32,475 bases of DNA, from contig JAADDS010000034.1 of assembly GCA_013153845.1 (NCBI GenBank), positions 1 to 32,475 of the forward strand. The letters are read 5' to 3'. The notes under the pieces were generated by a model that had not been told where the DNA came from, did no database searches, and saw only the letters and a list, made by a program, of their open reading frames with translations. Positions 29,599 to 32,423 of this stretch are shown piece by piece (the first letter of the stretch is position 1; the number at the start of each line of letters is the position of its first letter). This DNA comes from Methanococci archaeon. GTDB lineage: Archaea; AGJL01; Methanococci; Methanococcales; Methanocaldococcaceae. The translations under genes were made by a program, and so were the position numbers.

Positions 29599-29652
29599 AT
29601 GAAAGATAAAAGTGGAAATTGGATAAATAACATAATAGATGATTTAAACAAT
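29599..29652 (+). pseudogene. N-terminal fragment of an interrupted gene
   Basis: A strong ribosome site (GGGGGGAGGGG) precedes an ATG that opens MKDKSGNWINNIIDDLNN in normal AT-rich host style. The frame then runs at about 29653 into the GC-rich structured element and becomes meaningless. This is what an insertion into codon 19 or so of a gene would leave. No protein family can be named from 18 residues. Its missing part is not obvious downstream, although AT-rich sequence between the two TnpB elements (31002-31100) may be a further piece. Confidence 0.4.
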
Positions 29653-29765
29653 CCTGACCTCCTCTCCGAGCTAAAGCTCGGAGGTTCCCATAGGGAACTC
29701 CCTTGCACTCCTGTCGCCAGGAGGTCATCGGGTCGGTTCTGTCATCGGGCCGGGTCAGGCGACCC
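29653..29765 (-). ncRNA. GC-rich structured element, probably a solo right end/omega RNA of a TnpB element
   Basis: The segment folds into nested stems. TGACCTCCT (29655-29663) pairs with AGGAGGTCA (29719-29727). It encloses the hairpin CTCCGAGC-TAAA-GCTCGGAG (29664-29683) and the hairpin GTTCCC-ATA-GGGAAC (29684-29698). GGGTCG/CGACCC (29730-29735, 29760-29765) forms an outer arm, and CCTGAC (29653-29658) can alternatively pair with GTCAGG (29754-29759). On the minus strand the final GAGCTTTAGCTC hairpin followed by GAGGAGGTCA resembles, from memory, the right end of IS605/IS1341-type elements, where the guide-bearing omega RNA ends. No tnpB body is attached on that strand. Alternative: left end of the following TnpB element. 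Confidence 0.45.
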
Positions 29766-29791
29766 ATCGATAATAATATATATTCCCACTC

Positions 29792-29800
29792 TTATAAATA
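29792..29800 (+). promoter_or_regulatory. Probable TATA box of the first TnpB gene
   Basis: TTATAAATA lies 42 bases before the tnpB ATG, placing transcription start near 29820, within the hairpin described next. Confidence 0.4.
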
Positions 29801-29809
29801 CCTTACGGT

Positions 29810-29831
29810 GTCGTAATGTTAGTATTACGAC
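29810..29831 (+). repeat. Hairpin just before the first tnpB (possible left end)
   Basis: GTCGTAAT and ATTACGAC form a perfect 8-base inverted repeat with the loop GTTAGT, ending ten bases before the tnpB ATG. IS200/IS605 elements carry subterminal single-strand hairpins of this kind at their left ends, recognised by TnpA. It could also occlude the start of the message. Confidence 0.4.
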
Positions 29832-29841
29832 GGTGGTATAG

Positions 29842-30918
29842 ATGAAAAAATCATTAGTCATGAAGGTTAGAGAATCATTAACAACCCATGCTCAAATGAA
29901 AATCGAACAATCCCTTGTTGATTTTAGAAATGCTGTTAATGATTGGATAAGAATATCGATAAATAATGGTTGGATTACTACAAGAACACTACAAAAATTC
30001 GGTTATAAACAACTTAGAGAGAAGTATTCTAACTTATATTCGGCAGTGTTGTTAGAGGCAATGGATGTAGCTATAGGAATACTAAAATCGGCAAAATCTA
30101 AAGGCATCGTCCCAGAGTTCGATGCAGATGTTATATGCTTTAAAAACCAACACTATAAATTGCACAGTTCGAGAGTTATCGTTCCATTATGCGGAGAGAA
30201 AACATACATTCCATTATACATTCCTAAGAAGTTTCGAAAATACTTGGCTAATTATAAGTTAGGAAGATTAACGATTTTTAAGAGGGATGATTGGTATTAT
30301 ATCTCAATCTCTGTGAAAATCGAACCACCAGAGAGGAAAGTTACTAATGTCATTGGAGTCGATTTAGGAGTGTATAATTTTGTGGTTGTAGCTGATGCGA
30401 AGGGGAGGGAGTTGTTGAGAATTTCTGGGAAAGATATTATCGAACGGAAGAAATTGTTAGAGTATAAGTATTCGGTAAAACAGCAGAGGGCTCGTAGGTA
30501 TTCGAAAAATCGTGTAATTGGACACAAATATAAGAATTATTCGAAGTATGTTAATCACTGTATAGCTAAAAAAGTTGTTGAAATTGCTAAAAAGTATAAT
30601 GCGATGGTTGTTTTAGAGAATCTTAAAAGAATTAGAGGGAAATCGAAGAGTTTGAGGAGGTTGTTTAGAAAGTGGCCGTATTTCGATTTGATACAAAAAA
30701 TCGAATACAAGGCTAAGGAAAATGGTATTCCAGTAGTTAAGATTAATCCGAGAAATACATCGAAAACTTGTAGTCGGTGTGGGTATGTTGATAGGAAGTT
30801 GAAGAATGAGAGGATTTTTGTGTGTCCGAAGTGTGGTTTAAGGATTGATAGGGATTTGAATGGTGCGATAAATATTGCCCGAAAGGTAGTCCCACCTCCT
30901 CCCTATCTTCGAGCGTAG
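29842..30918 (+). CDS. tnpB: TnpB RNA-guided nuclease, IS605/IS1341 type, intact catalytic residues
   Basis: The 358-residue protein has the OrfB layout: helical N-terminal domain with beta wedge (about 1-165), then RuvC. RuvC I is IGVDLGVYNF (Asp174) and RuvC II is MVVLENLKR (Glu259). The zinc ribbon is CSRCG/CPKCG (Cys310, 313, 328, 331), and RuvC III is RIDRDLNGAINIA (Asp338). All catalytic acids are present. TnpB cuts DNA guided by an omega RNA made from the element's right end, which favours retention of the element. There is no tnpA beside it, so it is a solo element moved in trans or no longer mobile. Codons such as TCG and ATC-G junctions give more CpG than in host genes, consistent with transfer. 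A GACGGTGG ribosome site lies before the ATG. Confidence 0.92.
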   Translation: MKKSLVMKVRESLTTHAQMKIEQSLVDFRNAVNDWIRISINNGWITTRTLQKFGYKQLREKYSNLYSAVLLEAMDVAIGILKSAKSKGIVPEFDADVICFKNQHYKLHSSRVIVPLCGEKTYIPLYIPKKFRKYLANYKLGRLTIFKRDDWYYISISVKIEPPERKVTNVIGVDLGVYNFVVVADAKGRELLRISGKDIIERKKLLEYKYSVKQQRARRYSKNRVIGHKYKNYSKYVNHCIAKKVVEIAKKYNAMVVLENLKRIRGKSKSLRRLFRKWPYFDLIQKIEYKAKENGIPVVKINPRNTSKTCSRCGYVDRKLKNERIFVCPKCGLRIDRDLNGAINIARKVVPPPPYLRA

Positions 30919-31001
30919 CGAGGAGAGTAATGAAAACCGTTAGGTTTTCATCTGAATTCATCACTACCCTAAGCAGAGTTTCTTAGCGACAACTAAGGGT
31001 A
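30850..31001 (+). ncRNA. Predicted omega RNA / right end of the first TnpB element
   Basis: The end of tnpB and the following 80 bases are rich in structure. There is a perfect hairpin TGAAAACC-GTTA-GGTTTTCA (30931-30950). A closing stem TACCCT/AGGGTA (30965-30970, 30996-31001) surrounds CTAAG (30969-30973) and CTTAG (30982-30986), which can also pair with each other. Such alternative pairings are typical of omega RNA 3' ends. In this family the scaffold ends at the right end of the element and the next 15-20 bases of flanking DNA act as guide, which here would begin close to 31002. The 5' boundary is a guess. Confidence 0.5.
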
Positions 31002-31100
31002 AAAAATGAGATGATAGATTTAAAACATTCGTTAGAAGAGTCGACATTTAAAATAAATAACAGATACAACATATTAGAACAGGGGTCTTCCCAACGTGGT
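31002..31100. other. AT-rich leftover between two TnpB elements
   Basis: This stretch returns to host-like composition and has an open frame (IDLKHSLEESTFKINNRYNI, then LEQ) that leads into the second element's right end. The start ATGATAGATTTAAAACA resembles ATAATAGATGATTTAAACA at 29629-29648 to the left of the first TnpB element, so the two flanks may derive from one site. It may be a remnant of the interrupted gene. Confidence 0.3.
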
Positions 31101-31260
31101 CATTCATGGACAATTATAGATTTTGAGAAATCTCCCATTCAAATCTACAGTATAGCTCACATTGGGATTGGGCTTCATCGGTCTCAACTCCCCTCTGGGT
31201 TCATTGGAGAGTAAATCATCGACCTCAGCCCCAGCCACGGGAACCCCAACTCCGCCTAAG
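31080..31260 (-). ncRNA. Possible omega RNA / right end of the IS607-like element
   Basis: The 3' end of the minus-strand tnpB contains the hairpin AGATTT-CTCA-AAATCT (31118-31133 on the plus strand) close to the stop at 31104-31106, and a GC-rich CCCAATCCCAATG segment upstream. By analogy with IS607-type TnpB elements the right end and guide boundary would lie near or just beyond 31100, toward 31080. Boundaries are approximate and the fold is weaker than that of the first element. Confidence 0.3.
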
Positions 31261-32423
31261 AGTTTTTTAGCTAATCTAACTCCTCTTTTAAAAATATTAT
31301 AGCAACCAACAAACTGCCTATTAAAAATTCCACACTTATCGCATTTTACAACCTGCCCCTCTTGGGACTTCATTTTACTCCCGCATACGGGGCAGGTTTT
31401 TGAAGTATAGTGAGGATTAACGTATAGGACAACACTCTTATACTCCAACTTTTTCGCTATTTTTCTCCAGTTAGTTCTATCCAAATCCCTATTAAAATCC
31501 GAATTCTTATCATACATGTTGAATTTATCTAAATCTTCAAAGATGAAAATCGCATCTGGAAAGAGTTTAGATAGTTGGGACGTTAGCTTGTTAATAAAAT
31601 CTTCGACTCGGTTTTTTCTCCTATTCCAGTATTTTTTCAATAATTTACCAATTCTCTTCGGAGCTTTTTTATAGATAGATTTTAACTTATCGATAATAAC
31701 ATCATAAACCCTCTTTAGTCGATGCAATTCAGATAAATCAATACGAACCCAACCTTCTATCGGATGATATAAGTCCAACGACTTTAGATTGCTATCTACA
31801 CCAATAACAACTTTTTTATCGGATAAATCAAATGGTTTTTTAAAAGTTATTAATGCCTCATTTTCCTTTAAGATAACCTCTCCAACGTCAAAATCTTTAA
31901 CTCTTTCGAAAAACCACTCATCTTTAATGTTTAAAATTAAATACTCTTTTCTCGGTTTTATTGTAATCCTTATCTTTCCAGTTTCTTTATCGTACTTCAT
32001 TAGAGTGGTCTTAACTCTAACAAAAGGTCTTTTGAATATCGGTTTGTTTCTTCTTCTCTTTCCATTCAAATAATTCGATTTCCAACTCCCTATCGCTGAA
32101 TAAGCTGTCTTAATAGCTCCATCGATATAGTGGGATGCAAACTTCCAGTCCTCCAATAAACAATTTCTTAACTCTCTTTTAAAATCATTATCCTTTGGAA
32201 TTTCGGGAATTAGTCGGGTGGTCGTGTAATATTTGTATTTCTTTCCAACTTTGTATCGATGTTTAACCGTCTTTTCCTTCCAATTGATATTCTCCCAAAT
32301 AATATCGACGGCTCTTTGAGAGATTTTTATAAACTCGTATGGCAGGTTTTTTAAATCGTGGTTGTGTTTAACCTTGTAAGTCAATACAATTTCGGTTGGG
32401 AGTTTATTCTTTTTCTTTGGCAT
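31104..32423 (-). CDS. tnpB: TnpB, IS607 type, missing the third RuvC acidic residue
   Basis: The 439-residue protein has the TnpB layout. RuvC I is VVIGVDSNLKSLDLY (Asp210), RuvC II is IFIFEDLDKFNMY (Glu296), and the zinc ribbon is CPVCG/CDKCG (Cys344, 347, 361, 364). RuvC III should then read DRD; here it is FNRQFVGCYNIFKR, with Asn368 and Gln370 in place of the two aspartates. So two of three catalytic acids are present. The tail from about 390 (GAEVDDLLSNEPRG...) overlaps the probable omega RNA region, as is common. The ATG follows GGGAGGAGG and overlaps by 20 bases the end of an upstream frame that is probably TnpA. It may be a nuclease with a relocated catalytic residue, or a nuclease-dead RNA-guided binder. 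Confidence 0.88.
   Translation of the reverse strand: MPKKKNKLPTEIVLTYKVKHNHDLKNLPYEFIKISQRAVDIIWENINWKEKTVKHRYKVGKKYKYYTTTRLIPEIPKDNDFKRELRNCLLEDWKFASHYIDGAIKTAYSAIGSWKSNYLNGKRRRNKPIFKRPFVRVKTTLMKYDKETGKIRITIKPRKEYLILNIKDEWFFERVKDFDVGEVILKENEALITFKKPFDLSDKKVVIGVDSNLKSLDLYHPIEGWVRIDLSELHRLKRVYDVIIDKLKSIYKKAPKRIGKLLKKYWNRRKNRVEDFINKLTSQLSKLFPDAIFIFEDLDKFNMYDKNSDFNRDLDRTNWRKIAKKLEYKSVVLYVNPHYTSKTCPVCGSKMKSQEGQVVKCDKCGIFNRQFVGCYNIFKRGVRLAKKLLGGVGVPVAGAEVDDLLSNEPRGELRPMKPNPNVSYTVDLNGRFLKIYNCP

What the first reader, a model, noticed from the sequence alone, without database searches (positions are those of the whole stretch)
29653..29765. GC-rich structured RNA-like element on the minus strand: solo right end or orphan omega RNA
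Several nested perfect stems and one alternative pairing occupy about 110 bases. Read on the minus strand it ends like the right end of an IS605/IS1341 element, but no tnpB precedes it on that strand; instead an oppositely oriented TnpB starts 77 bases away. It could be a small non-autonomous element moved in trans, or a stand-alone guide RNA whose guide would be the flanking bases left of 29653 (the interrupted gene). An orphan omega RNA that TnpB could use in trans would be unusual.
Basis: partly seen in the sequence, partly recalled or inferred. Interest (0 to 1): 0.62.

Follow-up and report, generated by a model that had tools for sequence, protein, structure and literature searches.

The report
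TnpB guide RNA facing backwards
A GC-rich RNA gene of unknown function in heat-loving archaea (HgcC) turns out to be the guide-RNA end of a small jumping element whose TnpB nuclease gene points the opposite way from its guide, and many copies of the guide also sit alone without the nuclease.

Summary
The structured element is real. On the minus strand it is a full-length match to the orphan RNA family HgcC (Rfam RF00062, 101.7 bits), whose function has been called unresolved. It is neither solo nor a left end. It is the guide-bearing right end of a 1,345-bp IS200/IS605-type element (29654-30998) whose tnpB (29842-30918) is inverted and divergent from it.

Evidence. In 23 bounded copies the other end follows a TTAC/TCAC-like target motif, while the HgcC end stops at GGAGGTCAG followed by variable flank. 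Empty alleles read motif + flank without target duplication. The window's motif + guide (TTAC|GATTGTTTAAATC) is intact in contig C58 of the same assembly. HgcC folds with covariation, carries the loop-to-3'-end pseudoknot described for TnpB guide RNAs, and has a TATA box about 30 bp upstream. All eight tnpB copies of this clade (three genera; one decayed 3' fragment aside) have HgcC in the same divergent position. Thermococcales carry a relative of the RNA's 3' half in the usual co-directional place. Most other copies are 210-285-bp tnpB-less derivatives with the same ends: stand-alone guide RNAs.

Not shown: transcription of this copy, binding to TnpB, cleavage.

The parts
29654..30998 (-). 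Whole IS200/IS605-type element, 1,345 bp, read LE to RE on the minus strand: LE - inverted tnpB - HgcC/RE. No target duplication.
   Evidence: End alignment of 23 copies; empty alleles.
29654..29768 (-). HgcC RNA scaffold = right end (RE), ending ...CGGAGAGGAGGTCAG at 29654; predicted omega RNA (reRNA).
   Evidence: RF00062, 101.7 bits; covariation; variable flank begins exactly after GGTCAG in nearly all copies.
29634..29653 (-). Predicted guide (first about 16-20 nt of flank): GATTGTTTAAATCATCTATT. Same sequence next to TTAC in the intact allele on contig C58.
   Evidence: Guide length of 16-20 nt taken from PMC8612924, not measured here.
29753..29758 (-). CTGACC in the apical loop of the first hairpin (P1), 5' half of the predicted pseudoknot.
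   Evidence: 6 of 6 pairs in 18 of the 20 copies scored, 5 of 6 in the other two; nearly invariant, so covariation cannot prove it.
29654..29659 (-). GGTCAG, 3' half of the predicted pseudoknot, directly before the guide.
   Evidence: same topology as the published omega-RNA pseudoknot.
29793..29798 (-). TTTATA, TATA box of HgcC 30 bp before the first conserved base; overlaps a TATA-like TTATAAATA on the plus strand upstream of tnpB.
   Evidence: TTTATA/TTATATA at -25 to -48 in 16 of 22 copies; shuffled mean 1.0, max 5.
29842..30918 (+). tnpB, 358 aa, intact RuvC D174 (GVDLGV), canonical RuvC-II Glu (VVLENLKR), RuvC-III D338 (DRDLNGA) and CxxC/CxxC zinc ribbon; inverted relative to LE and RE.
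   Evidence: Pfam, NCBIfam guided_TnpB 170.6 bits against cut-off 100; alignment; AlphaFold2 pLDDT 87, Foldseek hits Cas12f and TnpB.
30919..30998 (-). Left end (LE), reads CCTTAGTTGTCGCTAAGAAACTCTG... on the minus strand; similar LE flanks the tnpA-bearing element of G007.
30999..31002 (-). TTAC, target/TAM motif immediately outside LE.
   Evidence: TCAC 14, TTAC 4, TGAC 2, TTGC 1 of 21 independent sites; boundary fixed by empty alleles.

Best explanation
The feature is the right end and guide-RNA (omega RNA/reRNA) gene of an IS200/IS605-type element in which tnpB has the opposite orientation to the guide RNA. A divergent promoter region drives tnpB one way and HgcC the other. The HgcC transcript runs out through the transposon boundary, so its last about 16-20 nt are host flank. 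TnpB binds the HgcC scaffold, including the pseudoknot that sets the start of the guide, and cuts DNA carrying T(T/C)AC plus that flank, which is the empty site left after excision or on an uninfected allele. Repair from the occupied copy then restores the element. tnpB-less copies keep both ends and a complete HgcC gene, and would be moved by a Y1 transposase and protected by TnpB, both acting in trans. Shown: element limits, motif, empty alleles, RNA structure, the conserved inverted arrangement, the TATA box, origin of the small copies by internal deletion. Inferred: transcription of this copy, TnpB binding and cleavage, action in trans.
For: (1) RF00062 match and covarying structure. (2) In 21 independent sites LE follows T(C/T)AC-like DNA, and the HgcC end is followed by non-conserved flank. 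This is the IS608-like rule, TTAC on the LE side and guide on the RE side. (3) Empty alleles: the C70 insertion site is contiguous in 11 other genomes with no duplication. The window's guide sits next to TTAC in the intact gene of contig C58 and of G013. (4) All 8 members of the inverted tnpB clade (one decayed 3' fragment aside) have HgcC divergent from tnpB; the clade is supported 100/100. (5) Pseudoknot between the P1 loop at about -103 to -108 and the last 6 nt of the scaffold, the topology of ISDra2 omega RNA, whose pseudoknot nucleotides lie at -102 to -106 and -2 to -6. (6) In Thermococcales-like genomes the 3' half of the same RNA family lies co-directionally at the 3' end of tnpB in 14 loci, and dRNA-seq shows such HgcC RNAs starting inside transposase genes (PMC4247193). 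(7) TATA box about 30 bp upstream in 16 of 22 copies. (8) No room for another guide RNA: only a short LE hairpin follows the tnpB stop in G001, G034 and G035.
Against: No expression or binding data for this genome. The RuvC-II glutamate is canonical in this clade but rearranged in the TnpBs that carry HgcC-like ends co-directionally, so two distant TnpB lineages share the RNA's 3' half; that part could have been kept for transposase recognition alone. The pseudoknot is almost invariant, so covariation does not test it. No tnpA is in the element, and none was found in this assembly (87% complete). The window allele lacks 239 nt of the host gene between the two flanks, so this copy is not a simple insertion.
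Confidence: 0.82

Rival explanations
1. HgcC is a guide RNA, but for another TnpB (or for none now); the inverted tnpB is a passenger captured between ends that belong to a different element.
For: LE and motif are shared with the co-directional tnpA/tnpB element; the 3' half is shared with Thermococcales TnpBs of another lineage.
Against: All eight inverted tnpB copies keep HgcC. The P1/pseudoknot 5' half occurs in 12 of the far copies, none of them in the genomes whose HgcC-like RNA overlaps a co-directional tnpB. The two HgcC subtypes follow the TnpB subclades, G001/G034 against W/G010/G035. No alternative guide RNA is left for this tnpB.
Confidence: 0.1
2. HgcC is only a DNA end: the hairpins are recognised by the Y1 transposase as single-stranded DNA, and the conserved RNA-like folding has no RNA function.
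For: The LE carries a similar hairpin; tnpB-less copies move, so the ends alone suffice for mobility; HgcC copies persist where no clade tnpB was found (G004, G007, G013).
Against: Covarying stems lie up to about 110 nt inside the end, well beyond a subterminal hairpin. A TATA box sits at a fixed distance upstream. HgcC transcripts were verified by Northern blot in earlier work and by dRNA-seq in T. kodakarensis (PMC4247193).
Confidence: 0.05
3. HgcC is a regulator of tnpB (antisense or leader) rather than a guide RNA.
For: Divergent promoters lie within about 75 bp.
Against: The predicted transcripts do not overlap. HgcC is conserved in copies without tnpB, and its 3' end is fixed at the transposon boundary.
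Confidence: 0.03

Closest known systems
TnpB reRNA/omega RNA of IS200/IS605 elements (ISDra2; PMC8612924)
   Same: Scaffold ends at the RE boundary; flank is the guide; motif on the LE side; no target duplication; pseudoknot of the first hairpin loop with the scaffold end.
   Different: There the RNA overlaps the 3' end of tnpB on the same strand, and TnpB can process it from its own mRNA (PMC10278001). Here tnpB is inverted and HgcC must be a separate transcript.
HgcC (Rfam RF00062)
   Same: This is a member (101.7 bits, full length).
   Different: Literature calls its function unresolved (PMC5732400). Association with transposase genes was noted in Pyrococcus furiosus (antisense) and T. kodakarensis (sense) in PMC4247193, without a link to TnpB guide RNAs.
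sotRNAs of haloarchaeal IS1341/IS605 elements (RF02656, RF02657)
   Same: Archaeal RNAs at tnpB elements, now called omega RNAs (PMC12558985).
   Different: Sense-overlapping with tnpB; no Rfam hit of the window element to these families.
Non-autonomous IS605 derivatives (PATE/MITE type; from general knowledge)
   Same: Both ends kept, no genes, presumably moved in trans.
   Different: Each small copy here keeps a complete guide-RNA gene, usually with its TATA box.

Membership tests
HgcC, RF00062 | Covariance-model score above the gathering cut-off | tested here: met
   101.7 against 50 bits, positions 1-130 of 130.
IS200/IS605 element | Insertion 3' of a fixed short motif, no target duplication | tested here: met
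   T(C/T)AC-like motif at 21 sites; empty alleles.
IS200/IS605 element | Subterminal hairpins at both ends | tested here: met
   LE and RE hairpins in the aligned copies.
IS200/IS605 element | Y1 transposase tnpA in cis | tested here: not met
   None in the element and no PF01797 hit in the assembly; present beside a like LE and motif in G007. So it is described as an IS1341-like or trans-mobilised relative, not a complete IS605.
TnpB (RNA-guided endonuclease) | RuvC D/E/D and zinc ribbon, TnpB fold | tested here: met
TnpB omega RNA/reRNA | 3' end of scaffold at the transposon boundary, guide = flank, motif at the opposite end | tested here: met
TnpB omega RNA/reRNA | Pseudoknot of first stem-loop apical loop with nucleotides next to the guide | tested here: inconclusive
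   Complementary in all 20 copies scored (18 at 6 of 6 pairs, 2 at 5 of 6), but almost invariant.
TnpB omega RNA/reRNA | Encoded co-directionally, overlapping the 3' end of tnpB (usual layout, not required for function) | tested here: not met
   tnpB inverted in all eight clade members.
TnpB omega RNA/reRNA | Bound by TnpB and directs cleavage | not testable with these tools
   Needs RNP purification and a cleavage assay.
TnpB omega RNA/reRNA | Transcribed | not testable with these tools
   TATA box here; expression only from papers on other species.

The most novel reading that the evidence does not exclude
HgcC, an orphan archaeal ncRNA family, is a set of mobile stand-alone guide-RNA genes. 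In one TnpB clade the nuclease gene was inverted or captured into an element whose guide RNA became an independent transcript, which freed the guide RNA to spread without the nuclease. One TnpB then serves many insertion sites in trans, and in hosts that lack the TnpB (M. jannaschii, for example) the guides persist as orphans, possibly with a new role.
Probability: 0.35. Interest if true: 0.75.

Novelty: new variant of a known kind. Interest (0 to 1): 0.62.

Why it matters
It offers a testable function for an RNA family that PMC5732400 still called unresolved in 2017. It shows a layout in which the TnpB guide RNA is uncoupled from the tnpB mRNA, so processing of its own message cannot supply the guide; this is the kind of step needed on the way from self-contained OMEGA elements to separate effector and guide loci as in CRISPR-Cas12. 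Several solo guides beside a single TnpB gene give a natural test of use in trans, in hyperthermophiles where a heat-stable compact nuclease would also be of practical interest.

Tried and rejected
Rejected: solo right end for this copy (paired LE and motif found). Rejected: the sequence as the left end of a normal TnpB element (the motif is on the other side, and the flank at this side is not conserved). First reading of the motif as T(C/T)ACCAT was corrected to T(C/T)AC after the empty alleles showed that CAT belongs to the element. MAFFT misplaces P1 by one column in G004b/G001; pairings were re-read per sequence. Plasmid search with the HgcC DNA found nothing; the plasmid tblastn gave only TnpBs under 60% identity. 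The genome-contig scan with the TnpB found one relative only, the MAG contig already seen. Literature searches linking hgcC with TnpB/IS605 listed no paper containing both; the original 2002 HgcC paper is not held.

Full report
WHAT IS THERE. The minus strand of 29640-29780 folds far better than shuffled sequence and is a full-length HgcC RNA, Rfam RF00062, 101.7 bits. The own genome holds two more full copies, on contigs C53 and C70. Seven of 14 genomes of the genus carry copies over the cut-off, as do two genomes of a second genus, G034 and G035.

BOUNDARIES. Read in HgcC orientation, nearly all copies end GGAGAGGAGGTCAG and then differ. At their other end lies a common left end, CAT-TAGTTGTCGCTAAG..., preceded by TCAC (14), TTAC (4), TGAC (2) or TTGC (1) in 21 independent sites. 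The window element follows TTAC at 30999-31002 and runs to 29654, 1,345 bp.

EMPTY ALLELES. The C70 copy lies inside a gene. Its two flanks joined match 11 other genomes across the junction, and those alleles lack the element and three bases of the first-guess flank (CAT). The closest of them read ATTAC followed directly by the guide-side flank, which puts the boundary after TNAC and shows no duplication. For the window, contig C58 of the same assembly begins 56 bases before the RE boundary and continues into an intact gene; there the guide GATTGTTTAAATC is preceded by AATTTAC, that is, TTAC plus guide. The window allele differs from C58 by 239 missing host bases between the two flanks. In G013 a second TTAC lies exactly at the far side (CATTTTTTAC), so the copy probably arose with an adjacent deletion between two TTAC sites, or from two insertions. 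C58 and C67 share only a short word at the fork, as assembly-graph branches do, so both alleles may coexist in the sampled population; this is inference.

TWO KINDS OF COPY. Five Methanocaldococcus/Methanotorris-like copies contain tnpB or its remains, always inverted and divergent from HgcC: the window, G010 C25 and G001 intact, G035 with a frameshift, G034 truncated. The rest are 210-285 bp with the same ends. In G010 the small copies are 95-98% identical to both ends of the tnpB-bearing copy, and at one orthologous site G010 has the long form and G006 the short form. G007b and G007c still hold a scrap of the inverted tnpB zinc-ribbon region. The small copies are thus internal-deletion derivatives. 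G004, G007 and G013 have HgcC but no tnpB of this clade at the threshold used.

RNA. With the Rfam stems and one pseudoknot, 95% of cells pair, 10 pairs change on both sides, and 0 of 500 shuffles reach the covariation score; sliding the partners by one column halves the pairing. Shuffles do not remove relatedness, so this is support, not a probability. The pseudoknot CTGACC/GGTCAG is complementary in all 20 copies scored (6 of 6 pairs in 18, 5 of 6 in two) but varies on one side only. It has the topology described for ISDra2 omega RNA and for other TnpB reRNAs. A TATA box lies about 30 bp upstream in 16 of 22 copies, including the window, against one expected after shuffling.

TNPB. The 358-aa protein matches guided_TnpB over its cut-off, keeps the RuvC D/E/D and zinc ribbon, and its AlphaFold2 model (pLDDT 87) matches Cas12f and TnpB structures. 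Inverted-clade proteins form one clade, 100/100. Their RuvC-II glutamate is in the canonical place. The TnpBs that carry HgcC-like right ends co-directionally have the rearranged form, a Glu six residues before the first CxxC (criterion from PMC10711439).

BEYOND THE GENUS. Fourteen loci of one family, f7 (Thermococcales-like by size), have the HgcC-like RNA overlapping the 3' end of tnpB on the same strand, the textbook omega-RNA position. They share the 3' hairpins and GGAGGTCAG but mostly not the P1/pseudoknot half. A 2014 transcriptome paper already reports HgcC RNAs from transposase genes in T. kodakarensis and, antisense, in P. furiosus.

MECHANISM. The geometry fits the peel-and-paste model: TnpA excises and inserts next to T(T/C)AC; TnpB with a guide equal to the RE flank cuts the motif + flank joint so that repair restores the element (PMC8612924). 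The new point is that the guide RNA cannot come from the tnpB mRNA here. It has its own divergent promoter, which also explains how it survives as a tnpB-less mobile gene. No tnpA is in the element or found in this assembly, but a like LE and the same motif flank a tnpA-tnpB element in G007, so mobilisation in trans is the likely route.

LIMITS. No transcript, binding or cleavage was measured. The paper library is partial, so the HgcC-TnpB link may be published elsewhere.

Noticed in passing
window about 31083-32423 (-): A second, unrelated TnpB element (439 aa, another TnpB clade) is inserted in the same host gene, its right end GGGAAGACCCC next to TGTTCTAATATGTTG; C58 shows the gene without it.
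   Followed up: partly
window 29654-30998 versus contig C58 (L214): The allele with the element lacks 239 nt of the host gene between the two flanks; G013 has a TTAC at each edge of that interval, which suggests an adjacent deletion or a fusion of two insertions.
   Followed up: partly
window 29810-29831: The tnpB leader holds an inverted repeat GTCGTAAT-N6-ATTACGAC; its arms are identical in G010 C25 (L071) while the spacer differs: possible operator or RNA hairpin.
   Followed up: no
LE flanks of many copies (L064-L081, L140-L145): The target TCAC is often the complement of a GGTGA ribosome-binding site, so many insertions sit just upstream of a start codon, with HgcC pointing away from the gene.
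   Followed up: partly
L071 and L068: Orthologous site occupied by the tnpB-bearing form in G010 and by the short form in G006 (same flank CTACGGCAAAACTTGG).
   Followed up: yes
L193-L209 and L085-L087: TnpBs with co-directional HgcC-like ends have the rearranged RuvC glutamate while the inverted clade has the canonical one: two distant nuclease lineages share right-end sequence.
   Followed up: partly
L082 5090-5600 (own contig C66): A decayed copy: LE and a 3' tnpB fragment remain, HgcC and the RE are gone.
   Followed up: partly
L192 (G314): A P1/pseudoknot-type HgcC without a tnpB within 4 kb in a genome of family f7 (Pyrococcus-like by size).
   Followed up: no
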